Part shown: one piece after another, positions 2 to 26,179 of the stretch
Numbering within the stretch: position 1 is the stretch's first letter
How the letters are laid out: each line of letters opens with the position of its first letter
Source: Clostridiales bacterium
GTDB taxonomy: Bacteria > Bacillota > Clostridia > Lachnospirales > JAQSXR01
NCBI GenBank assembly: GCA_029256575.1
Contig: JAQSXR010000022.1
Span: 1 to 36,754 of the forward strand
DNA length: 36,754 nt
Direction: 5' to 3'
The notes under the pieces: model-generated
Seen by the model: the letters and a program-made list of their open reading frames with translations, nothing else
Told to the model about the DNA's origin: nothing
Databases searched by the model: none
Program-made: the position numbers and the translations under genes

Positions 2-754
2 AAGATGAGAAACCAAATTAAAGGGTTACAACAAGCTTCAACAAATGCACAAGATGGAATTTCATTAATCCAAACAGCAGAAGGTGCATTAACAGAAGTT
101 CATGAAATATTAAAAACAATGAGACAAAAAGTAGTAGATTACGGAAATGGTACTAAGACATCAGACGATAGAAATGCTATCTTTGCTCAATTACAACAAT
201 CAATACAAGAAGTAAACAGGATTGCAACTACTACTGAATTTAATACAATGAAATTATTCACAGGTAAATATTCAGCATCAGCTACTGAAATGAAACTTCA
301 AATCGGTGCTAATGGTGGACAAACTATGGGAGTTATCGTTGGTAACATGCAAGTATCTAAGCTTGGATTATCTGTTGCAGGTGGTGAATTTGCTGCAGGG
401 CATAGTATACTAATGCTTAAAGCAGATAATACTACTTCGGGTGTTGGAGCAGCTACTGGAGCACAAATTGCTACTGCAGTTAGTAAGACATTAAAATTAT
501 TAGATTCATCTATTAAGACAGTATCTTCACAAAGATCATCTTTAGGTGCATACCAAAACAGACTTGAAAATACTATTAACAACTTAAATGTATCTGCAGA
601 AAACTTACAAGCAGCTGAATCACGTATTAGAGACGTAGATATGGCAAAAGAAATAATGGAACACCAAAAGAACAACATATTATTACAAGCTTCACAATCT
701 ATGTTGGCTCAAGCAAATCAAGCGCCACAAGGTGTTTTATCATTACTTAGATAA
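2..754 (+). CDS. hag: Flagellin, 5' end outside window
   Basis: Structural subunit of the flagellar filament. The reading frame is already open at base 2, and the first 82 bases match bases 1111-1192 of the next flagellin exactly. By that alignment about 50 N-terminal residues lie outside the window, giving a full protein of about 300 residues. Visible are the end of the N-terminal D0/D1 coiled region, a short central variable segment (bases about 375-490), and a complete C-terminal D1/D0 region with the typical AESRIRDVDMAKE motif and a final LSLLR. It has no large outer domain, so it is a compact clostridial-type flagellin. The internal ATG at base 5 is not a start. A strong terminator follows. 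A Maf glycosyltransferase is encoded just downstream, so glycosylation of this protein is plausible but inferred. Confidence 0.95.
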   Translation, partial: KMRNQIKGLQQASTNAQDGISLIQTAEGALTEVHEILKTMRQKVVDYGNGTKTSDDRNAIFAQLQQSIQEVNRIATTTEFNTMKLFTGKYSASATEMKLQIGANGGQTMGVIVGNMQVSKLGLSVAGGEFAAGHSILMLKADNTTSGVGAATGAQIATAVSKTLKLLDSSIKTVSSQRSSLGAYQNRLENTINNLNVSAENLQAAESRIRDVDMAKEIMEHQKNNILLQASQSMLAQANQAPQGVLSLLR

Positions 755-779
755 TTTTAATTAATATTTTTATACATAA

Positions 780-804
780 CAAAGCTGACTATATGTCAGC
801 TTTG
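780..804 (+). terminator. Flagellin terminator
   Basis: Perfect 10-bp stem (780-789 with 795-804, core AAAGCTGAC/GTCAGCTTT) with loop TATAT, 25 bases after the flagellin stop and followed by T-rich sequence. The same stem core recurs after the second flagellin at 1613-1646, consistent with duplication of the whole gene unit. Confidence 0.85.
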
Positions 805-852
805 TTTATGTATAAAATTTTACATTTATGAAGAATATATAAAAAAGAGCAT

Positions 853-879
853 TAAGTTTTATTAAAACAATGTCGATAT
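853..879 (+). promoter_or_regulatory. Sigma-D (sigma-28) promoter of second flagellin
   Basis: TAAG (853-856), a spacer of exactly 15 bases, then GTCGATAT (872-879). The known sigma-D consensus is TAAA-N15-GCCGATAT, so this differs at one base in each box. It lies 82 bases before the flagellin start codon, giving an untranslated leader of roughly 75 bases. The site looks intact although the gene it serves is broken. Confidence 0.85.
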
Positions 880-961
880 ATAGTCATAAGTGTATAACTG
901 GCCGTTTACATTAAAAAATAACGTGGCAAGGAGCCACCAACATTCCAAGGAGGAATTTATT

Positions 962-1580
962 ATGATAATTAATCACAATATTTCAGCTATGAATACTCAT
1001 AGACAATTAACAGGAACAACTGGATCACTTGGAAAATCAAGTGAAAAACTTTCATCTGGTTACAGAATCAACCGTGCTGGTGATGATGCAGCTGGTCTTA
1101 CAATCTCTGAAAAGATGAGAAACCAAATTAAAGGGTTACAACAAGCTTCAACAAATGCACAAGATGGAATTTCATTAATCCAAACAGCAGAAACTTCAAA
1201 TAGGCGCAAATGGTGGACAAACTATGGGCGTTATCGTTGGAAACATGAAAGTATCTAAACTTGGATTATCTGTTGCAGCAGCAGGTGCTGGTCATAAGAT
1301 TCTTATGAATGCAGTTGGTACTGCTCCTGGTCTTCTTTCAACAGCTCCTGGTGTTTCTGTTGCAGCAGCAGTTAGTGCTACATTAGGTGTATTGGATACA
1401 GCTATCAAGACAGTATCTTCACAAAGATCATCTTTAGGTGCTTACCAAAACAGATTAGAAAACACAATCAATAACTTGAATGTATCAGCAGAAAACTTAC
1501 AAGCAGCTGAATCACGTATCAGAGACGTAGATATGGCAAAAGAAATAATGGAACACCAAAAGAACAACATATTATTATAA
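962..1580 (+). pseudogene. Degenerate second flagellin gene
   Basis: Starts at ATG 962 after a good GGAGG site, with a normal flagellin N terminus ([16 protein letters not shown]). The frame runs correctly to base 1192, then joins sequence that in the first flagellin lies 212 bases further on (position 295). Because 212 is not a multiple of three, the frame shifts and ends at 1258. The C-terminal part continues in another frame to a stop at 1578-1580, where a CAA codon of the first copy is TAA. The last 20 or so residues, needed for the D0 coiled coil, are missing. No slippery heptamer is visible at the junction, so programmed frameshifting is unlikely. It could be a true pseudogene, a recombination reservoir, or a misassembly between near-identical copies. 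Promoter, ribosome site and terminator remain intact. Confidence 0.85.
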
Positions 1581-7595: not shown

Positions 7596-8852
7596 TTATT
7601 GAATCTTACTTACAAAATCAGGATAACTTTCCATTCCATGTTCGTGAATATCAAGTCCTTGAATTTCTTCAATTGCAGGAACACGAAGACCTACAGTTTT
7701 TTGAATTACTTTAAAAAGAATGAATGTAGTACAAACAGTCCAAGCGGCAACTGCAAGTACCCCGACTGCTTGAATACCAAGAAGCTTAGCACCACCACCA
7801 TAGAATAAACCTGTTATTGCTTTTTCTGTACCTGGGGCATAGTTTGCAAATAATCCTACTAATAATGTACCGCCAACACCATTTAGTAAATGAACACCAG
7901 TAGCACCAACTGGATCGTCAATTTTACAAACTTTATCAATGAATTCCACACCAAACACGATAAGGAAACCAGATATTATACCGATAATTATTGATCCCCA
8001 CATTGTTACTACTTGGCATCCAGCAGTAATAGCAACTAAGCCTGCTAGTGCTCCATTTAGAGTAAGACCAACGTCTGGTTTTTTATACTTAAGCCAAGTG
8101 ATTATCATTGCTACACATGCACCAGCAGCAGCAGCTAAGTTAGTAGTCATTGCTATATGACCTATTTCATTATTAGCAGCAATAGTAGAACCAGGATTAA
8201 ATCCAAACCATCCAAACCAAAGGATAAATACTCCGAGTGCACCAAGAGTTATACTGTGACCAGGGATAGCATTTGAACTACCGTCTTTGTTATACTTTCC
8301 TATTCTTGGCCCAAGTATTGCAGCTCCAACTAGGGATGCCCAACCACCAATGGAGTGAACTACTGTAGAACCAGCAAAATCTACAAAACCAAGGTCAGCT
8401 AACCAACCACCGCCCCATATCCAATGACCAACAACAGGATAAATAACAAGACTGATTACAGCTGAGTATATTACATAGGATAAGAATTTAGTACGTTCAG
8501 CCATTGCGCCAGAAACGATAGTTGCAGCAGTAGCACAAAATACTGTTTGGAAGAAAATAAATACTCCAGGAGTAAGGGCTGTGAATTGAGCTACATTTGT
8601 CATTTGATCCGGATTGAAGAAACCACTTGTTCCGAATAATCCCATAAATGAGTCTCCGAACATAATACCAAAACCAATAATAAAAAATAGTATCGAACCA
8701 ATAGCAAAGTCCATTAAGTTTTTCATTATAATGTTACCAGCGTTTTTTGCTCTAGTAAATCCAGTTTCTACCATTGCAAAGCCAGCTTGCATAAAGAATA
8801 CGAGTGATGCAGCAATCATTGTCCATATAATATCAACATAATTTAATTCCAT
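7596..8852 (-). CDS. amt: Ammonium transporter Amt
   Basis: Integral membrane ammonium channel of 418 residues. Start ATG at 8852, with GGAGGT on the minus strand (complement of 8859-8864). The protein is a run of about eleven hydrophobic helices with Amt landmarks: FFMQAGFAMVETGFTRAKN near the N terminus, GAMAERTKF, VVHSIGGWASLVGAAILG carrying the first conserved pore histidine, and DDPVGATGVHLLNGVGGTLLVGLF carrying the second. There is no cleavable signal peptide of note. It is the last gene of the minus-strand set and follows glnK by 48 bases, the standard pairing in which GlnK plugs the channel when nitrogen is ample. The order glnK then amt is the reverse of the common arrangement. Confidence 0.95.
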   Translation of the reverse strand: MELNYVDIIWTMIAASLVFFMQAGFAMVETGFTRAKNAGNIIMKNLMDFAIGSILFFIIGFGIMFGDSFMGLFGTSGFFNPDQMTNVAQFTALTPGVFIFFQTVFCATAATIVSGAMAERTKFLSYVIYSAVISLVIYPVVGHWIWGGGWLADLGFVDFAGSTVVHSIGGWASLVGAAILGPRIGKYNKDGSSNAIPGHSITLGALGVFILWFGWFGFNPGSTIAANNEIGHIAMTTNLAAAAGACVAMIITWLKYKKPDVGLTLNGALAGLVAITAGCQVVTMWGSIIIGIISGFLIVFGVEFIDKVCKIDDPVGATGVHLLNGVGGTLLVGLFANYAPGTEKAITGLFYGGGAKLLGIQAVGVLAVAAWTVCTTFILFKVIQKTVGLRVPAIEEIQGLDIHEHGMESYPDFVSKIQ

Positions 8853-8900: not shown

Positions 8901-9239
8901 TTAAAGTGCAGATTCACCGCGTTCGCCAGTACGGATACGAATCGCATCTGCCACATCGATTAAGAAAATTTTGCCATCGCCGGCATCTCCAGTAGACATT
9001 CGTTTACAGACAAGATCTATTATTTTCTCAGCAACTTCTTCCGTAGTAACTGTTTGAATCTTTACTTTAGGTAACAAATTAACTGTATATTTTGTGCCTC
9101 TGTATTGGGCCGTGAACCCCTTTTGATTACCAAATCCCATAATATTACTTAACATAAGACCAGTAGCACCACATTCTTCTAAAATAACTTTTAGTTCCTC
9201 TAGACGTTCTGGTTTAATAATAATTTCAATTTTTTTCAT
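8901..9239 (-). CDS. glnK: P-II nitrogen regulatory protein GlnK
   Basis: Encodes 112 residues. Start ATG at 9239 (MKKIEIIIKPERLEE), placed by AAGGAGAAAT just upstream; a start 18 bases earlier at 9257 would consume the ribosome site. Family features: YRGTKYTVNLLPKVKI is the T-loop with Tyr46 and Tyr51, the latter being the uridylylation site in enterobacterial homologues; TGDAGDGKIFLIDV is the C-terminal P-II signature, with AIRIRTGERG binding nucleotide phosphate. P-II trimers sense ADP/ATP and 2-oxoglutarate and block Amt. Whether Tyr51 is modified here is unknown because no glnD is in the window. It is probably expressed from a leader or read-through downstream of glnN. Confidence 0.95.
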   Translation of the reverse strand: MKKIEIIIKPERLEELKVILEECGATGLMLSNIMGFGNQKGFTAQYRGTKYTVNLLPKVKIQTVTTEEVAEKIIDLVCKRMSTGDAGDGKIFLIDVADAIRIRTGERGESAL

Positions 9240-9302
9240 ACATATTTCTCCTTCCACTTTAAGTGATAAATTGATGTAGTTAATTTAAAATATATACAAC
9301 AA

Positions 9303-9341
9303 AGGCGTGACTACCGGATGGTAGCACGCCTATGTGCAAAT
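9303..9341 (-). terminator. Hairpin between glnN and glnK (terminator or attenuator)
   Basis: Read on the minus strand, a GC-rich hairpin AGGCGTG-CTACC / GGTAG-CACGCCT (arms 9331-9325 plus 9324-9320, and 9315-9311 plus 9309-9303, one bulged base) is followed by TTTGTTGT. It ends glnN transcripts and could attenuate glnK-amt. The eleven bases directly before it (ATTTGCACATA on the minus strand, 9341-9331) occur identically just downstream of the glnN -10 box. No convincing separate glnK promoter was found. Confidence 0.65.
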
Positions 9342-9358: not shown

Positions 9359-11404
9359 TTATACGTTAAATAATAAATCGGAGTAAGTTGGGTATGGCCA
9401 GTACAGTGTACTAACTATTTCTTCAAGAGCATCTGCAACTGTTCTTAACTCGCCCATAGCTATAAATACAGTATCTCTATAGTATTTAGCAAGATCAAGA
9501 GCATTCGTAATTTCTTTTGCTTTTATATTAGATATTTGAAGAATATCAATCTTTTCTATAAGCGATTCCGTTAAATTAGATACCTTTGTAACGAAAGCTT
9601 CTTCTCTTACTGTAGCTAGGTTTAATCCAGATGCCTTCTTCAAAGCTAGTGAATTTAACAACTCAGTCGAATATTCAATACAAGCTGGTAAAATTTCTTT
9701 ATTCGCCATATCAATCATTGTAAGAGCTTCAATATTAATTGCCTTCGTATAATCTTCAAGTAAAATTTCATAACGTGAATGAATTTCAGCTTCTGAGAAT
9801 ATACCGTGTTTTGTAAATACCTCTATATTCTTAGGAGCAATGAAAGATGGTAGAGCTTCTACGGTCGATCTTAAATTTGGTAAACCACGTTTTTTAGCTT
9901 CTATTACCCAATCTTCGCTATAATTGTTTCCGTTAAATATAATTCTCTTATGTTCTTTAATCGTCTCTTTTACTAATGATTCAACGCATAAATCAAAATC
10001 ATCAGCCTTTTCAAGTATGTTAGCAAATTTTCTAAGTGATTCTGCTACGATTGTATTTATTGTAATATTAATTCCCGCAATACTTTGAGATGAACCAGGC
10101 ATTCTAAATTCGAATTTGTTTCCAGTAAATGCAAAAGGTGAAGTACGGTTTCTGTCTGTTGTATCTTTATTAATAGTTGGTAATGAATCAACACCGGTTA
10201 CGACAATACCTCTAATTTTATCCAATGATGTTTTTCCAGCTTCAATTGCTTCAAGAACATTTGTAAGTTCTTCACCTAAAAACATTGAAACAATAGCAGG
10301 TGGAGCTTCGTTTGCACCTAAACGGTGATCATTTCCTGCAGTTGCTACAGAAACTCTTAATAGATCTCCATAAGTATCAACGGCATCAATTATTGCACTT
10401 AAGAAAAACAAGAACTGTTTGTTGTGAATTGGATCTTCACCTGGTTTTAATAAGTTTTCACCTGATGTAGTACCAAGTGACCAGTTATTATGTTTACCAG
10501 AGCCATTTACACCAGCAAAAGGTTTTTCATGTAAAAGACAAACTAGACCGTGTCTTTTAGCAATTTTCTTCATAAGGTCCATCGTGAGTTGGTTATGATC
10601 AGTTGCTATATTTGTTGTTGAATAAATTGGAGCAAGTTCATGTTGACCTGGTGCAACTTCATTGTGTTTTGTTTTGGCATGCACGCCAAGCTTCCAGAGT
10701 TCTTCATCGAGTTCTTTCATATATGCAGAAACTCTTTCTTTTATTGATCCAAAGTAATGGTCTTCAAGTTCCTGACCTTTTGGAGGCATTGCACCAAAAA
10801 GAGTTCTTCCTGTAAATATTAAGTCTTTACGTTGTTTGTATGTTTCTTCATCTATTAAAAAGTATTCTTGTTCTGGCTTTAAAACTTTAAGAGCTTCTTT
10901 ATTAATTGCTTCCATTGAACGTAGTAGAGGAGTTTTCTTATCTAATACTTCACCACTATATGAACAGAAAGCTGTTGGTATGCAAAGTGAGTCATCTTTA
11001 ACGAAAGCGTATGAAGTTGGGTCCCAAGCAGTATAACCTCTTGCTTCAAATGTTGCACGTAATCCACCTGAAGGAAAACTAGATGCATCAGGTTCGCCAA
11101 GAATAAGTTCTTTGCCTGAGAATTCCATAATGATTTTTCCTTCAACAGAAGGTGAAATAAAAGCATCATGTTTTTCTGCTGTGATACCAGTCATTGGTTG
11201 GAACCAATGTGTAAAATGAGTAGCACCTTTTTCAATTGCCCAATCCTTCATCGCATTTGCGACTACTTGAGCTACAGTTTCATCTAAAGGAGCACCTTCG
11301 TCGATTGTTTTCATTAAAGATTTGAAAGTTTCTTTTGGTAAACGCTCTTTCATAATTGATTCGTTAAAAACATTACTACCAAATAATTCATTTATTTTTT
11401 TCAC
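9359..11404 (-). CDS. glnN: Glutamine synthetase type III
   Basis: ATP-dependent glutamine synthesis from glutamate and ammonium. Encodes 681 residues, close to the usual 700 or so for GSIII and far longer than GSI (about 440). Start is GTG at 11404 ([11 protein letters not shown]), placed by AGGAGG at complement 11413-11418; the open frame extends upstream to 11497 but runs through the leader hairpin. Diagnostic motifs include [21 protein letters not shown] near the N terminus, [44 protein letters not shown] and [21 protein letters not shown], containing metal and substrate residues of the catalytic domain. The C terminus is a helical extension specific to GSIII. Transcribed divergently from the glutamate synthase operon; its leader carries a terminator-like hairpin. 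Confidence 0.95.
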
Positions 11405-11435
11405 TGTAATAACCTCCTGGAATTCTAGTTTAAAC

Positions 11436-11473
11436 AAAAAATGGCGCTGTGCGGAGACCCACACAGCGCCATT
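11436..11473 (-). terminator. glnN leader hairpin with U-run (candidate attenuator)
   Basis: On the minus strand AATGGCGCTGTG (11473-11462) pairs perfectly with CACAGCGCCATT (11451-11440), and a TTTTTG run follows. The T-run is present only in the minus-strand direction. It lies between the glnN promoter (11498-11526) and the glnN start (11404), so it would end most transcripts about 60 bases after initiation unless relieved. This is the layout of an attenuator. I did not find the paired hexaloop hairpins expected of an ANTAR-controlled leader. Confidence 0.7.
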
Positions 11474-11497
11474 GCTGTTCGAAATTAATATGTGCAA

Positions 11498-11526
11498 ATT
11501 TTATCACGGAATATGCAACGTGTCAA
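11498..11526 (-). promoter_or_regulatory. Sigma-A promoter of glnN
   Basis: Minus strand: TTGACA (complement 11521-11526), spacer of exactly 17 bases, TAAAAT (complement 11498-11503). A near-consensus promoter. Predicted start of transcription is near 11490, about 18 bases before the leader hairpin. Confidence 0.85.
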
Positions 11527-11630: not shown

Positions 11631-11659
11631 TTGACCTCAAAAAAAATATATTGTATAAT
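11631..11659 (+). promoter_or_regulatory. Sigma-A promoter of glutamate synthase operon
   Basis: TTGACC (11631-11636), spacer of 17 bases, TATAAT (11654-11659). Expected start of transcription is near 11666, giving a leader of about 90 bases. Confidence 0.88.
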
Positions 11660-11673
11660 AAGGAAAGAACAAT

Positions 11674-11711
11674 GGCGTTCATAAGGGGATAATAGTCTCT
11701 TTGTGGGCGCT
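11674..11711 (+). other. Glutamate synthase leader hairpin (candidate attenuator)
   Basis: GCGTTCATAA (11675-11684) pairs with TTGTGGGCGC (11701-11710) using several G-U pairs, and the inner GGGGA/TCTCT stem (11685-11689 with 11696-11700) closes the hexaloop TAATAG. The T-rich TTTATTATTT follows. It starts about 9 bases after the predicted transcription start. Sequence before and inside it (GAACAATGGCG, GTCTC, GGCGC) echoes the glnN leader hairpin. Confidence 0.55.
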
Positions 11712-11754: not shown

Positions 11755-12855
11755 ATGCTAAAAGAAGGGCAAGTAAGAATCCCATCAGGGTGTGCCATAT
11801 CAGGCATATTTTCAAAATCAGGTGAAAATATTTGTGGAGATAAAATAGTTAAGTCAATCGCTACAATGCATGATCGTTCGAATGGATTAGGTGGGGGATT
11901 TGCAGGGTATGGAATTTACCCAGAATATAAGGACTTATATGCTTTTCACGTATTTTTCGACAATATGACTGCCCGAGAAAACACGGAAAAGTTCTTAGAT
12001 AGACATTTTGATGTAGTTAATTTATCTCGAATCCCTACTAAGAAAATACCACAGATTACAAATGAACCTCTTATTTGGAGATATTTTGTTAATCCATTGG
12101 CAACAAAATTGGCGGAATCACAGTTAGGGGAACTTGAATTTATTACAAGATGTGTAATAAATATCAACAACCGAATCGATGGAGCTTATGTTTTTTCAAG
12201 CGGAAAGAATATGGGCGTATTTAAAGCAGTAGGTTTTCCGGAAGATGTAGGCGAATTCTACAGACTAGAAGAATATGAAGGATACTCATGGACTGCTCAC
12301 GGAAGATATCCGACGAATACACCAGGATGGTGGGGCGGAGCTCATCCATTTGCATTGCTAGACTATTCAATTGTTCATAATGGTGAAATCTCAAGCTATG
12401 ACGCAAACAGAAGATTTGTTGAAATGTTTGGCTACAAATGTTCATTACAAACAGATACTGAAGTTATTACCTATATTATTGATTATCTGAACCGAAGACA
12501 GGGATTATCTCTTGAAGATGTAGCTACCGTAATAGCAGCACCTTTCTGGAGCCGAATTGATAAGATGGATACCCAGACAAAAGAAAAAATTACTTATTTA
12601 AGAAATACATTTGCAAGTTTATTAATAACAGGACCATTTTCAATTATATTAGGATTTAATGGTGGAATGATGGCTTTAAATGATAGATTGAAATTACGTT
12701 CTATGGTTGCTGCAGAGAAGGGCGAAACAGTTTACTTTGCCAGTGAAGAGTGTGCAATTAGGGTTATTGAAGAAAATCCAGACAGAATTTGGTCACCAAA
12801 GGGTGGCGAACCACTAATCGTAACTTTAAATGGAGGTGTTAATAGTGGCAATTAA
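11755..12855 (+). CDS. Glutamate synthase, glutamine amidotransferase subunit (class II)
   Basis: Encodes 366 residues from ATG 11755 behind AAGGAGGATATT. Corresponds to the amidotransferase domain that is fused at the N terminus of classical GltB but is a separate protein in the archaeal-type enzyme. It should hydrolyse glutamine and pass ammonia to the FMN subunit. Cys13 in SGCAISGIFS is the expected N-terminal nucleophile after removal of a 12-residue leader. Class II landmarks follow: GRYPTNTPGWWGGAHPF and SIVHNGEISSY with the conserved Asn-Gly-Glu, then ECAIRVIEENPDRIW near the C terminus. It overlaps the next gene by 11 bases, so translation is coupled and an equimolar complex is expected. 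First gene of the operon. Confidence 0.88.
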   Translation: MLKEGQVRIPSGCAISGIFSKSGENICGDKIVKSIATMHDRSNGLGGGFAGYGIYPEYKDLYAFHVFFDNMTARENTEKFLDRHFDVVNLSRIPTKKIPQITNEPLIWRYFVNPLATKLAESQLGELEFITRCVININNRIDGAYVFSSGKNMGVFKAVGFPEDVGEFYRLEEYEGYSWTAHGRYPTNTPGWWGGAHPFALLDYSIVHNGEISSYDANRRFVEMFGYKCSLQTDTEVITYIIDYLNRRQGLSLEDVATVIAAPFWSRIDKMDTQTKEKITYLRNTFASLLITGPFSIILGFNGGMMALNDRLKLRSMVAAEKGETVYFASEECAIRVIEENPDRIWSPKGGEPLIVTLNGGVNSGN

Positions 12856-14350
12856 TTTTATTTATCCAGAATATGAAGTAATAAGAAATAAAGACCGCTG
12901 TATTTCATGCCGTGCGTGTGAAAGACAATGTGCCAATGAGGTACATAGCTATGATAAAGAGCTTGGTATTATGTGCGCAGATGAATCAAAATGTGTAGAT
13001 TGTCATCGTTGCGTATCAATTTGCCCAACTAGAGCTTTAAAAATCGTTAAATCTGATCATACATTTAGAGAAAATGCTAACTGGAAAGATCAAACGATAA
13101 ATGAAATATACCGTCAAGCAGACTCGGGCGGAGTATTGTTGTCCTCAATGGGAAATCCAAAAGACTATCCTGTATACTGGGATAAGATATTGATTAATGC
13201 GTCTCAAGTAACAAATCCATCCATTGATCCACTCCGAGAACCAATGGAAACAAAAACGTTCCTTGGAAAAAAAGATCAAAAGGTTAAGTTTGATGAAAAT
13301 GGAAAATTGATTACAAAGACAGAACCAAATATTGAATTATCTGTTCCAATTATGTTTTCTGCTATGAGTTATGGATCAATAAGTTATAACGCACATGAAA
13401 GCTTAGCACGTGCTGCTGAAGAACTTGGTATTTTGTATAACACAGGAGAAGGCGGACTTCACGAAGATTTCTACCAATATGGTAAAAATACAATTGTTCA
13501 AGTGGCATCAGGCCGTTTTGGGGTACATCGTGGTTATTTAGAAGCAGGAGCAGCAATCGAAATTAAAATGGGTCAAGGAGCGAAGCCTGGAATAGGTGGA
13601 CATTTACCTGGAGCCAAAATAGTTGGAGATGTATCAAAGACTCGTATGATTCCTGAAGGAACAGATGCTATATCACCTGCTCCACATCATGACATATATT
13701 CTATAGAAGATTTAAGACAATTAGTTTTCTCGCTTAAGGAAGCCTCCGATTATAAGAAACCAGTAATCGTTAAGATAGCTGCCGTTCATAATGTAGCAGC
13801 AATTGCATCAGGAGTTGCTAGAAGTGGGGCAGATATTATAGCAATAGATGGTTATCGAGGCGGAACTGGAGCAGCACCAACAAGAATCAGAGACAATGTT
13901 GGTATACCAATCGAACTAGCATTAGCAGCAGTTGATGAAAGATTACGAGAAGAAGGTATTAGAAATGATGTGTCTGTTGTAGTTGGGGGATCAATACGAT
14001 CAAGCGCTGATGCAGTAAAGGCAATTGCGCTTGGTGCAGATGCTGTATATATTGGAACAGCTGCACTACTAGCTTTAGGTTGTCACTTATGTAGAAGTTG
14101 CCATACGGGTAAGTGTAATTGGGGTATCGCAACACAAAGACCTGACTTGGTTAAGAGACTTAATCCTGAGGTTGGTTACAAAAGATTAGTGAATCTTGTA
14201 ACTGCATGGGAACATGAAATAAAAGAAATGATGGGTGGAATGGGTATTAACTCAATTGAAGCACTCAAAGGTAACCGTTTAATGCTAAGGGGCATTGGAC
14301 TAAATGAAAGAGAACTTCAAATCTTAGGAATAAAACATGCAGGTGAATAA
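12845..14350 (+). CDS. Glutamate synthase, FMN/iron-sulfur catalytic subunit
   Basis: Encodes 501 residues. The GTG at 12845 is chosen because GGAGGT lies at 12832-12837; an in-frame ATG at 12830 contains that site. The N terminus has two 4Fe-4S motifs (Cys19/22/25/29 and Cys50/53/56/60). The body is the FMN-binding barrel of glutamate synthase: PIMFSAMSYGSISYNAHESL, NTGEGGLHEDFY, KPGIGGHLPGAKI and the flavin site GGSIRSSADAVKAIALGADAV. Cys413/416/419/424 in CHLCRSCHTGKC matches the 3Fe-4S site region. It makes two glutamates from 2-oxoglutarate and glutamine-derived ammonia using two electrons. The added N-terminal ferredoxin domain is the archaeal-type feature and suggests electrons arrive through the ferredoxin-like protein encoded next rather than a GltD subunit. 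Confidence 0.92.
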   Translation: MAINFIYPEYEVIRNKDRCISCRACERQCANEVHSYDKELGIMCADESKCVDCHRCVSICPTRALKIVKSDHTFRENANWKDQTINEIYRQADSGGVLLSSMGNPKDYPVYWDKILINASQVTNPSIDPLREPMETKTFLGKKDQKVKFDENGKLITKTEPNIELSVPIMFSAMSYGSISYNAHESLARAAEELGILYNTGEGGLHEDFYQYGKNTIVQVASGRFGVHRGYLEAGAAIEIKMGQGAKPGIGGHLPGAKIVGDVSKTRMIPEGTDAISPAPHHDIYSIEDLRQLVFSLKEASDYKKPVIVKIAAVHNVAAIASGVARSGADIIAIDGYRGGTGAAPTRIRDNVGIPIELALAAVDERLREEGIRNDVSVVVGGSIRSSADAVKAIALGADAVYIGTAALLALGCHLCRSCHTGKCNWGIATQRPDLVKRLNPEVGYKRLVNLVTAWEHEIKEMMGGMGINSIEALKGNRLMLRGIGLNERELQILGIKHAGE

Positions 14351-14432
14351 ACTTTTACTAAAAACTATAATGTAGTATTTTTGAAAATTAAAAAATTTGC
14401 TTTGTAAAATTTTGAAAGGCAGGATTCAATAA

Positions 14433-14864
14433 ATGAAAAAAGTGTACGTTAACGAAGAATGGTGTTTAGGTTGTCATTTGTGTGAATATTATTGTGCTTT
14501 TGCTAACAGTGGAATTACCGATATGGTTAAGGCTCTTAAGGACAAAAAGATAAATCCGAGAATACAAATAGAAGAAGGCGGCGATGTATGTTTTGCAGTT
14601 TCGTGTCGCCACTGCGAAGAACCTTTGTGCGTTAAAGGGTGTATTACAGGTGCGATTACGATCGTAGACGGAGTAGTAAGTGTTGATAGGGAAAAATGCG
14701 TATCCTGTTATACCTGTATATTATCTTGTCCATATGGAGCAGTTATGCCATCTGACGAGGGTGCTATACAAAAATGCGAACTTTGTGTAAAAAATGCAGG
14801 TGGTGAGCCGAATTGTGTTAAAGGATGTCCAAACAAAGCAATAGTATTTGAGGAAAGGGGTTAA
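14433..14864 (+). CDS. Polyferredoxin electron-transfer subunit (HycB/CooF-like)
   Basis: Encodes 143 residues from ATG 14433 with a moderate AAAGGCAGG site. Sixteen cysteines arranged for four 4Fe-4S clusters are visible: CLGCHLCEYYC, CRHCEEPLCVKGC, CVSCYTCILSCP and CELC followed by CVKGCP. This is the pattern of the HycB/DmsB/CooF electron-transfer family. There is no signal peptide, so it is cytoplasmic. It lies between the FMN subunit and the flavoprotein, so it probably wires the flavoprotein to the glutamate synthase core. The 82-base gap before it is the widest in the operon and holds no clear terminator. Confidence 0.88.
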   Translation: MKKVYVNEEWCLGCHLCEYYCAFANSGITDMVKALKDKKINPRIQIEEGGDVCFAVSCRHCEEPLCVKGCITGAITIVDGVVSVDREKCVSCYTCILSCPYGAVMPSDEGAIQKCELCVKNAGGEPNCVKGCPNKAIVFEERG

Positions 14865-14868
14865 AAAT

Positions 14869-16104
14869 ATGAACTATGTAATAATAGGAAATTCAACAGC
14901 AGGAATTGGGACAGTTGAAGGTATTAGAAAACATGATAAATCAGGTGAAATAATAATAATTTCCAATGAAAAGCACCATACTTATTCAAGACCTCTAATT
15001 TCTTACCTACTATATGGAAAAACAACAGAAGAAAAGATGAAATATCGCAAAGATTCTTTTTATGAAGATAATAATGCAAAATTAGTATTTGGAAATGTTC
15101 TCAGTATTGATGATAAGAAAAAGACCGTTAATCTTGAGAATGGTGAAAGCATTTCATATGATAAATTATTAGTTGGAGCAGGGTCGAAACCTTTTGTTCC
15201 ACCAATGCAGGGGCTAGAATCTGTTAAGAATAAATTTACTTTTATGTCATTAGACGATGCGAAGGCTTTGGAAGCAATTATTACAAGTGAAACTAGAGTA
15301 CTGATAATTGGAGCAGGCTTAATAGGACTAAAGGCTGCGGAAGGGTTATCGAAAAGGGTTGCAAGTATTACGGTAGTGGATATGGCAACAAGAGTATTAC
15401 CTAGTATACTAGATGAAGAAGGTTCAAAAATTGTTGAAGAACATCTTGTGAAAAGCAATATTAAATGTATTTTGGGAACAACAACGAAGGAACTATTTGA
15501 AGAAAAAGCGATTTTATCAAATGGTGATGAAATTAACTTTGATGTTTTAATAGTAGCTGTTGGTGTAAGACCAAATACGGAACTAGTTAAAGATATAGGC
15601 GGCCAAGTTAATCGCGGCATTCAAATAAATACAAAATGTGAAACTTCTATTAATGATATCTATTCAGCAGGTGATTGCACGGAAAGTTATGATATTACAA
15701 CAGGAGAAAATAAAATACTTGCGATACTCCCAAATGCGTATATGCAAGGTGAAGTAGCAGGAATAAATATGGCAGGTGGTAATAAAGAATATACAAATGC
15801 TATTCCGATGAATGCGATGAGTATTCTAGGACTACATATGATAACCGCTGGTAGCTATGATGGTGAACAAATTATTACGAAAGCAGAAAATGCGTATAAG
15901 AAATTAGTAGTAAGAGACGGGCTGCTAGTAGGCTATATTATGATAGGTGAAGTAAATAGAGCAGGCATTTATACTTCATTAATAAGGGATAAAGTTCAAC
16001 TTGATTCAGTTGATTTTGAAGTGCTTAAGAATAAACCTCAACTTATCGCTTTTTCTAAGCAGGTAAGAATGCAAAAGTTAGGTGGTGTTAAGAATGATAA
16101 TTAA
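14869..16104 (+). CDS. FAD-dependent NAD(P)H oxidoreductase of glutamate synthase operon
   Basis: Encodes 411 residues from ATG 14869, preceded by AGGAAAGGGG; the frame opens earlier at 14848 inside the previous gene. It has the two-nucleotide-fold pattern of the pyridine-nucleotide-disulfide oxidoreductase superfamily: N-terminal FAD motif NYVIIGNSTAGIGT (the usual third Gly is replaced within GNSTAG), NAD(P) motif VLIIGAGLIGLKAAEGL near residue 145, and a second FAD motif DIYSAGDCTE near residue 265. No redox-active CxxC is present, so it resembles rubredoxin/ferredoxin reductases and the NirB N-terminal part, not thioredoxin reductase. Likely role: hydride entry to the polyferredoxin. It overlaps the next gene by 11 bases. 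Confidence 0.87.
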   Translation: MNYVIIGNSTAGIGTVEGIRKHDKSGEIIIISNEKHHTYSRPLISYLLYGKTTEEKMKYRKDSFYEDNNAKLVFGNVLSIDDKKKTVNLENGESISYDKLLVGAGSKPFVPPMQGLESVKNKFTFMSLDDAKALEAIITSETRVLIIGAGLIGLKAAEGLSKRVASITVVDMATRVLPSILDEEGSKIVEEHLVKSNIKCILGTTTKELFEEKAILSNGDEINFDVLIVAVGVRPNTELVKDIGGQVNRGIQINTKCETSINDIYSAGDCTESYDITTGENKILAILPNAYMQGEVAGINMAGGNKEYTNAIPMNAMSILGLHMITAGSYDGEQIITKAENAYKKLVVRDGLLVGYIMIGEVNRAGIYTSLIRDKVQLDSVDFEVLKNKPQLIAFSKQVRMQKLGGVKNDN

Positions 16105-16810
16105 TGCAAAAGATTTACATTTCTCTAAACTCAATGCAATGATAAAGGAATGTAGTGAAAGTGAAATAGTTCTTGACAATGTAATTGGACACCGTTATAT
16201 TGGTGGTGGGACTAAAGGTAAAAATATAGCAATAAATGGTATACCAGGAAATGCTCTCGGAGCATATCTTGATGGTAGTTATATACGAGTAAAAGGCAAT
16301 GCACAAGATGCAACAGGGGATACAATGAATCGAGGAACTATTGTTATTGAAGGTTCTTCTGGCGATGCAACTGGATATGCAATGCGTGGTGGTAAAATAT
16401 TTATCAAAGGCGGCGCAGGTTACAGAGCGGGAATTCATATGAAAGCCTATAAAGAGTTAAAACCTATATTAATTATTGGTGAAAAAGCTGGAGACTTCTT
16501 GGGAGAATACCAAGCAGGCGGTATTATAGCAGTTCTCGGCAATAATTGTGAGGGCATTCCTGTAGGAAACTATTGCGGAACTGGTATGCATGGTGGTATG
16601 ATATTTATAAAAAGTGATAAGGCACCTGAGGATTTACCATTACAGATTATATGTAGAAAAGCAACACAAGAAGATTTTGATAATGTAGAACCTCATATTG
16701 AAGAGTTTTGTAAAGAACTTAATATAGAAAATTGTTATAAAGCAGAACAATTTTTTGTGCTTATTCCAAACACTAAGAACCCATACAAGCAACTTTATAC
16801 ACACAACTAA
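16094..16810 (+). CDS. Glutamate synthase GXGXG (alpha C-terminal) subunit
   Basis: Encodes 238 residues. The ATG at 16094 follows AGGTGGTG with good spacing and overlaps the flavoprotein stop; an in-frame GTG at 16082 lies too close to the ribosome site. The sequence is a right-handed beta-helix of repeated G-x-x-x-G-x-x-x-x-G units (GNALGAYLDGSYIRVKGNA, GDTMNRGTIVIEG, GYAMRGGKIFIKGGAGYRAG), the GXGXG domain that closes classical GltB and also occurs in formylmethanofuran dehydrogenase FwdC. In the split enzyme it is structural and helps form the ammonia channel. Together with the two subunits encoded at 11755 and 12845 it reconstitutes the large GltB chain in three pieces. Last gene of the five. 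Confidence 0.88.
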   Translation: MIINAKDLHFSKLNAMIKECSESEIVLDNVIGHRYIGGGTKGKNIAINGIPGNALGAYLDGSYIRVKGNAQDATGDTMNRGTIVIEGSSGDATGYAMRGGKIFIKGGAGYRAGIHMKAYKELKPILIIGEKAGDFLGEYQAGGIIAVLGNNCEGIPVGNYCGTGMHGGMIFIKSDKAPEDLPLQIICRKATQEDFDNVEPHIEEFCKELNIENCYKAEQFFVLIPNTKNPYKQLYTHN

Positions 16811-25985: not shown

Positions 25986-26125
25986 CAGTAATGAATTTAA
26001 TATTTACCGTAGACAGTAGGTGCTCATTAGAGCGTAAGCGTTAACGCCTACCGAGGAGTTAATAACTCACTTAATGAGTGCATAATGACTATATGCCTCT
26101 CTGTCTATGATAGAGAGGCTTTTTT
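25986..26125 (+). promoter_or_regulatory. L10 (rplJ) leader with attenuator
   Basis: The leader has a branched region around TACCGTAGACAGTAGGTGC and GCGTAAGC followed by GCCTACCGAGGAG, as in Firmicutes L10 leaders. Its 3' end is a terminator: GCCTCTCT (26095-26102) pairs with AGAGAGGC (26112-26119), then TTTTTT. GTAGACAG (26009-26016) can pair with CTGTCTAT (26101-26108), part of the terminator, giving an antiterminator alternative. Known biology: the L10-L12 complex binds the leader and favours termination. About 330 bases separate rplA and rplJ and this element fills most of that space. Confidence 0.85.
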
Positions 26126-26179
26126 AATGCAATTGCTAAACGAAGAAATTCGTAGCAAATAATATAAGGAGGTACACCA

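What the first reader, a model, noticed from the sequence alone, without database searches (positions are those of the whole stretch)
11436..11526. glnN transcript appears to begin with a terminator-like hairpin
A near-consensus promoter is followed within about 20 bases by a perfect 12-bp GC-rich stem and a U-run, 32 bases before the start codon region. A full terminator so close to the transcription start needs relief for glnN to be expressed, so antitermination or a nitrogen-responsive RNA or protein switch is likely. There is no room upstream for a large riboswitch, and no ANTAR twin-hexaloop signature was found.
Basis: partly seen in the sequence, partly recalled or inferred. Interest (0 to 1): 0.55.

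Follow-up and report, generated by a model that had tools for sequence, protein, structure and literature searches.

The report
One-hairpin RNA switch for nitrogen genes
The RNA of a glutamine-making gene seems to begin with a tiny protein-readable hairpin that blocks a stop signal, and the same one-hairpin switch stands before many ammonium-assimilation genes in related bacteria, although the textbook version of this switch uses two hairpins.

Summary
In detail: a near-consensus promoter is followed by a strong terminator ahead of glnN. The divergent gltS operon, the unlinked glnA-nitR operon and an MCP-like gene have the same layout; nitR is the only ANTAR gene found in the genome.

Across 80 glnN loci the hairpin recurs with covarying stems: 40 of 62 ANTAR-positive genomes, 1 of 17 ANTAR-negative. 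Of 82 pooled promoter-hairpin-terminator leaders, 68 have the hairpin base 7-13 nt after the -10 box (own glnN: 20). None has a second hexaloop with a 4-bp stem, although a like scan finds double hexaloops before eutA and a microcompartment gene.

Best explanation: antitermination by a glnA-linked, pseudo-receiver ANTAR protein through a single hexaloop near the RNA's 5' end, a variant of the known dual-hexaloop system. Binding and antitermination are inferred, not measured.

The parts
11498..11526 (-). glnN promoter TTGACA-17-TAAAAT with TG extension
   Evidence: 11 of 12 matches
11463..11478 (-). single ANTAR-type hexaloop hairpin A-CAGC[AAUGGC]GCUG-U of the glnN leader (proposed antiterminator)
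   Evidence: top hit of a covariance model made only from other genomes, E 0.0036 in the 3.1-Mb genome
11440..11473 (-). 15-pair terminator stem-loop whose 5' arm starts inside the hexaloop; mutually exclusive with it
11432..11439 (-). U-rich tail UUUUGUUU of the glnN leader terminator
9359..11404 (-). glnN, glutamine synthetase type III (GTG start)
   Evidence: GSIII_N E 1.2e-81
11631..11659 (+). promoter of the divergent gltS operon, TTGACC-17-TATAAT
11667..11680 (+). single hexaloop hairpin GAAC[AAUGGC]GUUC of the gltS leader
   Evidence: (E 2.8); base 7 nt after the -10
11674..11711 (+). terminator of the gltS leader overlapping the hexaloop
   Evidence: z -7.2
11755..16810 (+). presumed glutamate synthase operon: class-II GATase, Glu_synthase, Fe-S protein, Pyr_redox protein, GXGXG protein
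   Evidence: co-transcription inferred from spacing
9324..9337 (-). tentative: variant hexaloop GCAC[AUAGGC]GUGC between glnN and glnK-amt, overlapping a terminator; no good promoter of its own seen by eye
9303..9331 (-). terminator-like hairpin (one bulge) between glnN and glnK
8901..9239 (-). glnK (P-II protein)
7596..8852 (-). amt, ammonium transporter

Best explanation
The glnN leader is a transcription attenuator of the ANTAR kind reduced to one hexaloop. RNA polymerase starts a few to about 15 nt before a small hairpin, CAGC[AAUGGC]GCUG. Left alone this weak hairpin gives way to a far stronger terminator that reuses the 3' half of its loop and stem, and transcription stops after about 50-60 nt. 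When nitrogen is short, the ANTAR protein NitR, encoded right behind glnA, grips the hexaloop as it leaves the polymerase. This locks the lower part of the terminator's 5' arm and leaves a shortened upper hairpin set back from the U-run, so that glnN, gltS, glnA-nitR and others are read. NitR's own operon has the same leader, so the circuit would feed back positively. Shown here: the anatomy, its conservation and covariation, the target genes, co-occurrence with the ANTAR gene, and the absence of a second hexaloop. Inferred: start sites, that NitR is the binder, that it relieves termination, and that the signal is nitrogen shortage.
For: Hexaloop plus overlapping terminator at glnN, gltS, glnA-nitR and an MCP-like gene. 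One ANTAR gene found in the genome, directly after glnA. C-closed AANGGN hairpin within 350 nt of glnN in 40 of 62 ANTAR+ and 1 of 17 ANTAR- genomes, shuffles 0.34 of 62. In a selection that ignored the 5' flank, 32 of 46 candidates pair at all four positions against 10.5 (max 19) with permuted flanks. A model from other genomes ranks the glnN leader first. Pool of 82 leaders: -10-to-hairpin distance 7-13 nt in 68; second hexaloop (4-bp stem) in 0. Promoter-linked hairpins upstream of the 80 glnN genes, loops left free: with 6-nt loops 40 of 66 are A1/G4 and all 40 are C-G closed; loops of 4, 5, 7, 8 and 9 give 3 such in all. Targets: GS, GOGAT, Amt, P-II, AsnA, GlmS-like and other GATase genes. 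EutV and NasR recognise loops of this kind. Hexaloop hairpin -1.6 to -5.4 against -15 to -32 kcal/mol for the whole fold in 5 own leaders.
Against: No binding, termination or expression data. In the E. faecalis work deletion of the first hexaloop abolished induction by EutV, and NasR binds a single hairpin more weakly, at about 12 uM, so one hexaloop might not suffice. The small hairpin by itself is not more stable than shuffles (z -0.25). With the hexaloop held, the gltS leader still keeps a 10-pair hairpin about 6 nt from the U-run and the MCP leader a hairpin about 4 nt away, so relief there is less clear-cut than in glnN. 22 of 62 ANTAR+ genomes had no such hairpin within 350 nt of glnN; in five of these (L006, L008, L009, L012, L048) a full leader lies further upstream, not shown to be in the same operon, and L043 and L049 have near variants. 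Leaders without a found ANTAR gene: L051, L023 (elsewhere in its locus), G162, G170, G154. In one search the next commonest 6-nt class is G1/G4 (11 of 66), unexplained. Single model hits for gltS, glnA and the MCP gene are weak by E-value (2.8-3.7). The genome comparison ignores kinship and many genomes are incomplete.
Confidence: 0.85

Rival explanations
1. It is an ordinary dual-hexaloop ANTAR leader: the true start site is further upstream, or the second hexaloop is a degenerate hairpin that the scan misses.
For: The ANTAR leaders described in the passages I read have two hexaloops.
Against: Promoter-like sites (9 or more of 12) end 7-13 nt before the hairpin in 68 of 82 leaders; a second A1/G4 hairpin within 25 nt occurs in 1 of 82 (3-bp AU stem), below the null of 5.0; a like scan finds duals before eutA and a BMC gene.
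Confidence: 0.05
2. A plain attenuator: the terminator sets a fixed basal level or responds to transcription and translation conditions, and the hexaloop is read by no protein or by a protein other than an ANTAR one.
For: A few genomes without a found ANTAR gene keep the leader (L051; G162 and G170).
Against: Loop identity A1/G4 with C-G closure is kept while stems covary, and the element tracks the ANTAR gene.
Confidence: 0.07
3. The hairpin is a 5' RNA stabiliser or a terminator that insulates the divergent glnN and gltS promoters.
For: The two -35 boxes lie about 105 bp apart, and each promoter is followed by a hairpin with a U-run.
Against: Each terminator lies downstream of its own promoter and before its own gene; glnA, whose upstream gene runs the same way, has the same element, and so do other genes elsewhere.
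Confidence: 0.02
4. A small-molecule riboswitch for glutamine or ammonium.
For: Nitrogen genes downstream.
Against: The leader before the U-run is about 50 nt and is largely taken up by the hexaloop and terminator; no Rfam family at gathering score.
Confidence: 0.01

Closest known systems
Dual-hexaloop ANTAR target RNAs (eutP/G/S/A of Enterococcus faecalis, nasF of Klebsiella, amiE of Pseudomonas; Ramesh et al. 2012, PMC3369931, sections 7 and part 1 of 10 read)
   Same: Hexaloop with A1 and G4, C-G closing pair, hairpin built into the 5' arm of an intrinsic terminator, nitrogen-related genes, ANTAR protein in the genome.
   Different: One hexaloop instead of two; in most leaders close to the predicted 5' end at a near-fixed distance from the promoter; extended loop consensus AANGGC, where loop positions 4-6 also form the base of the terminator.
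nitR, an antiterminator gene of Clostridium acetobutylicum ammonia assimilation, and Clo1313_2030 of C. thermocellum in a GS-GOGAT gene cluster (PMC4676874, passages; it cites Fierro-Monti et al. 1992, not read)
   Same: Antiterminator tied to glutamine synthetase; the C. thermocellum one is an annotated receiver-ANTAR protein, proposed to be ammonia-sensitive.
   Different: No RNA target element is described in the passages seen; here a candidate target element and regulon are shown by sequence. That the present gene is the orthologue is inferred from linkage.
AmiR of Pseudomonas (pseudo-receiver ANTAR; described in the discussion of PMC8934654)
   Same: Receiver-like domain lacking the phospho-acceptor, ANTAR output domain.
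   Different: The partner is AmiC in AmiR; here it is unknown, with glutamine synthetase or P-II as guesses from linkage.
GS-GlnR circuit of Gram-positive bacteria (PMC9249791, start of abstract in the listing only)
   Same: Regulator encoded in an operon with glutamine synthetase and tied to nitrogen status.
   Different: GlnR is a repressor of transcription; NitR carries an RNA-binding ANTAR domain.

Membership tests
ANTAR target RNA (dual hexaloop motif) | hexaloop with A at position 1 and G at position 4 | tested here: met
   AAUGGC (glnN, gltS), AAAGGC (glnA); with loops left free, 40 of 66 six-base loops are A1/G4 (next class G1/G4, 11)
ANTAR target RNA (dual hexaloop motif) | terminal C:G pair under the loop | tested here: met
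   all 40 A1/G4 six-base loops
ANTAR target RNA (dual hexaloop motif) | two hexaloop hairpins joined by a short linker | tested here: not met
   0 of 51 (3-bp stems, null 3.8); 0 of 82 with 4-bp stems and 1 of 82 with 3-bp stems, null 5.0
ANTAR target RNA (dual hexaloop motif) | hexaloop hairpin overlaps the 5' arm of an intrinsic terminator | tested here: met
   required for the 82
ANTAR target RNA (dual hexaloop motif) | bound by an ANTAR protein that relieves termination | not testable with these tools
   only co-occurrence with the gene: 40/62 against 1/17
ANTAR protein (PF03861), for the nitR product | ANTAR domain above Pfam cut-off | tested here: met
   48 bits against cut-off 27.3
Response regulator with a working receiver, for the nitR product | phospho-acceptor Asp (EutV Asp54) | tested here: not met
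   aligned column is Ser in the own protein; among 22 aligned it is Asp in 1, N 15, S 4, G 1, V 1
EutV-type RNA contact | Tyr164 stacking on G4 and Met172 plug | tested here: inconclusive
   Met kept in 22 of 22; the Tyr position is His in 43 of 45 glnA-linked ANTARs, and in the 14 with no glnA, GXGXG or glnN match within 1.7 kb upstream it is Tyr 8, His 5, Met 1

The most novel reading that the evidence does not exclude
One hexaloop is enough in nature. A large class of nitrogen leaders across Clostridia (with like hairpins in Treponema and Calditrichales glnN loci) carries a single ANTAR hexaloop, in most cases fixed within a few bases of the predicted RNA start. It is read by glnA-linked pseudo-receiver ANTAR proteins that mostly have His where EutV stacks Tyr on G4. 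Because the hairpin emerges within the first 30 or so nucleotides, NitR would have to capture it on a polymerase that has barely left the promoter, a mode of antitermination without the recruitment hairpin that the current model requires.
Probability: 0.5. Interest if true: 0.75.

Novelty: new variant of a known kind. Interest (0 to 1): 0.62.

Why it matters
The published model holds that an ANTAR dimer must visit two hexaloops, a recruiting one and an antiterminating one, to stop termination in time (PMC8934654). A widespread natural class with only the second would show that the first is dispensable, and would give a roughly 60-nt system in which recruitment, timing and promoter distance can be tested directly. 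It also offers a concrete RNA mechanism for how many Clostridia, including species from gut and rumen samples, switch glutamine synthetase, glutamate synthase and ammonium uptake, and may explain why searches built on the dual motif would miss it.

Tried and rejected
Riboswitch or other known RNA: one Rfam match in the window at gathering score, the L10 leader, far from here; at E up to 10 only four matches far below their cut-offs; one implausible match (rli40, 26.7 bits against a cut-off of 100) across 13 loci. Twin hexaloop: looked for, not found beside these hairpins. Plain A..G.. hairpins without further conditions are not very informative: 46/62 against 7/17, with shuffles at 17 of 62. 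The strict promoter+hairpin+terminator rule misses leaders that looser scans find (27/62 ANTAR+ against 1/17 upstream of glnN; 28/62 against 2/17 over whole loci), so it is a lower bound. Family-level searches returned only the own genome. In the order-level survey Fisher on hairpins is weak (37/142 against 3/34, p 0.04) and on genomes is 25/92 against 3/54 (p 0.001). There some loci were fetched twice and counted twice among the 37, only listed hits were examined, and stricter filters applied; about 0.1 chance hit per genome is expected at the E-value used. One search stopped with a script error after 13 of 35 other leaders (2 of these skipped), and its automatic U-run columns are unreliable; only the folds and energies of the five own leaders are used, with gaps read from the folds. 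No structure prediction was made.

Rows dropped: L017 (genome not held) from ANTAR counts. For the covariance model 15 of the 37 distinct candidate hairpins were left out (14 with broken or not C-closed stems, and one paired AU-rich hairpin of L056 by judgement) and 4 were added (L026, L029, L080, L082), so the covariation is biased by choice; one search is the less biased test.

Full report
What is there. On the minus strand the glnN leader has TTGACA-17-TAAAAT (11526-11498), then a 15-pair stem (12 perfect pairs, a G-U and two more; 11473-11440) and UUUUGUUU, before a GTG start at 11404. The stretch folds 6.9 standard deviations below shuffles.

What was missed. Folded without its last 16 bases, the leader forms CAGC[AAUGGC]GCUG with one further pair on each side (11478-11463); this small fold is no better than shuffles by energy (z -0.25). 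The loop has A at 1, G at 4 and a C-G closing pair, the features recognised by EutV and NasR (PMC3369931 section 7 read; PMC7496416 passages; PMC8934654 part 1 of the discussion and passages). The loop's GGC and the 3' stem are also the base of the terminator's 5' arm, so the two folds exclude each other. The gltS operon on the other strand has its own promoter (11631-11659), GAAC[AAUGGC]GUUC (11667-11680) and a terminator (11674-11711).

The regulator. The genome (3.1 Mb, 95% complete) has one ANTAR match, directly behind glnA. The glnA leader again has promoter, GAAC[AAAGGC]GUUC and terminator. A model made only from other genomes ranks the glnN leader first in the whole genome (E 0.0036; 150 of 694 first-look candidates scored). 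Its seven hits at E up to 10 include gltS, glnA and an MCP-like gene with the same layout; the other three lie inside reading frames. The E-values of those three further leaders are weak (2.8-3.7), and they are accepted because promoter and terminator coincide. The name nitR is borrowed from PMC4676874 (passages), which cites Fierro-Monti et al. 1992 (not read).

Conservation. The 80 glnN loci were fetched by protein only. Of 79 genomes held, 62 have an ANTAR match. A C-closed AANGGN hairpin with at least four pairs lies within 350 nt upstream in 40 of 62 ANTAR+ and 1 of 17 ANTAR- (Fisher 1.4e-5, not corrected for kinship); shuffles give 0.34 of 62. In a selection blind to the 5' flank, 32 of 46 candidates (44 from the related loci, 2 from the window) pair at all four positions, against 10.5 (maximum 19) for permuted flanks. 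In the 26-sequence alignment 4 of 5 pairs change on both sides (that set was chosen for pairing). With loops left free, promoter-linked hairpins of six-base loop number 66, of which 40 are A1/G4 and all 40 C-G closed, while loops of 4, 5, 7, 8 and 9 give 3 such in all; 11 of the 66 are G1/G4 and unexplained. In five further ANTAR+ loci a full leader lies further upstream of glnN (L006, L008, L009, L012, L048); whether it drives glnN was not shown.

One hexaloop, near the start of the RNA. Pooling loci L003-L293 gives 82 distinct promoter-hairpin-terminator leaders (rule: C-closed A..GG., so loop conservation cannot be judged from this pool). A second A1/G4 hairpin within 25 nt occurs in 1 of 82 (3-bp AU stem) and in none with a 4-bp stem; the null for 3 bp is 5.0. 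In the own genome the distance is 20 (glnN), 7 (gltS), 11 (MCP gene) and 19 (glnA, counted by eye), so two of four lie outside the usual range. As a positive control, a dual scan of 15 regions (14 around ANTAR genes of other genomes, one own) finds dual hexaloops with terminators before eutA (L283) and a BMC-domain gene (L285), plus two less convincing pairs (L286 without a terminator, L292). One of these genomes (G217) also has a single-type leader, with a weaker promoter, before an amino acid permease.

Regulon. An order-level search (146 genomes; 99 with a hit at E up to 0.1, 92 with ANTAR) and fetched hits show full leaders before glnN, amt, glnA and gltS (read by eye from the proteins), a gltB-like GATase, asnA, a glmS-like gene, P-II, an amino acid permease and a periplasmic binding protein (Pfam), and before a gene I read as purF (no Pfam hit on the fragment). 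Full leaders occur in 25 of 92 ANTAR+ and 3 of 54 ANTAR- genomes, counting only listed hits. In a class-level search (54 of 196 genomes with a hit at E up to 0.02) 18 of 27 newly fetched top loci have the full layout, and 16 of these 18 have a glnN, gltS, glnA or amt match within 1.5 kb downstream.

NitR-like proteins. 45 of 61 distinct ANTAR proteins in the loci examined have glnA within 1.7 kb upstream. The phospho-acceptor column is Asp in 1 of 22 aligned, so most look like pseudo-receivers, as in AmiR. The residue at EutV Tyr164, which stacks on G4, is His in 43 of the 45 glnA-linked proteins (the others Tyr and Phe). In the 14 with no such N gene detected upstream it is Tyr in 8, His in 5 and Met in 1, and it is His in the 2 with only a GXGXG gene upstream. 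The Met plug is kept in the 22 aligned.

Mechanism. In five own leaders the hexaloop hairpin is weak (-1.6 to -5.4 kcal/mol) and the whole fold strong (-15 to -32), so the default should be termination. With the hexaloop held, glnN keeps only a 4-pair hairpin 9 nt before the U-run and glnK a 4-pair hairpin about 8 nt before; gltS keeps 10 pairs about 6 nt before and the MCP leader a hairpin about 4 nt before, which is less clear-cut. That NitR is the binder, that binding relieves termination, and that the signal is nitrogen shortage are inferences from loop identity, co-occurrence, gene linkage and target function. NitR's own operon bears the leader, so positive feedback is expected.

Known or new. 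ANTAR leaders before nitrogen genes are known (PMC3369931 section 10, part 1; PMC3369936 passages), defined as dual hexaloops (also PMC8164766 passages). Walshe et al. (PMC8934654) redefined the minimal binding site as one hexaloop but hold that both are visited for antitermination, and suggest that single sites may exist where polymerase timing does not matter. Ten library searches listed no paper that, in the listings and passages I read, describes single-hexaloop attenuators; many subscription papers are not held. I file this as a new variant of ANTAR attenuation, not as a member of the dual-hexaloop family, whose two-hairpin criterion fails.

Noticed in passing
window 9285-9340, minus strand: Between glnN and glnK-amt a variant hexaloop GCAC[AUAGGC]GUGC overlaps a strong terminator-like hairpin, possibly a second checkpoint inside a glnN-glnK-amt operon.
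   Followed up: partly
L287 around 2220 (own genome, contig C6): An MCP signalling-domain gene with a Cache-domain match has the same promoter-hexaloop-terminator leader, which would tie chemotaxis to the nitrogen regulon.
   Followed up: partly
L308 around 1422, 1506 and 1588: Three similar hexaloop hairpins in tandem, 82-84 nt apart, two of them with terminators by the scan: possibly stacked single attenuators.
   Followed up: no
L164 around 761: In a genome without a found ANTAR gene, a full leader precedes a class-I glutamine amidotransferase gene (hisH-like by eye).
   Followed up: no
L020 and L045 upstream of glnN: Two ANTAR-negative genomes keep GCGGCAAAGGCGGC near a good promoter but with pairs of the small hairpin broken, possibly decay after loss of the regulator.
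   Followed up: no
L283 and L285: Dual hexaloops with terminators before eutA and a microcompartment-domain gene.
   Followed up: yes
window 25989-26134: Ribosomal protein L10 leader (Rfam RF00557), an ordinary known element.
   Followed up: no
window 5-1580: Two flagellin-like reading frames in tandem (named by eye); the second seems split into two overlapping frames (890-1258 and 1224-1580).
   Followed up: no
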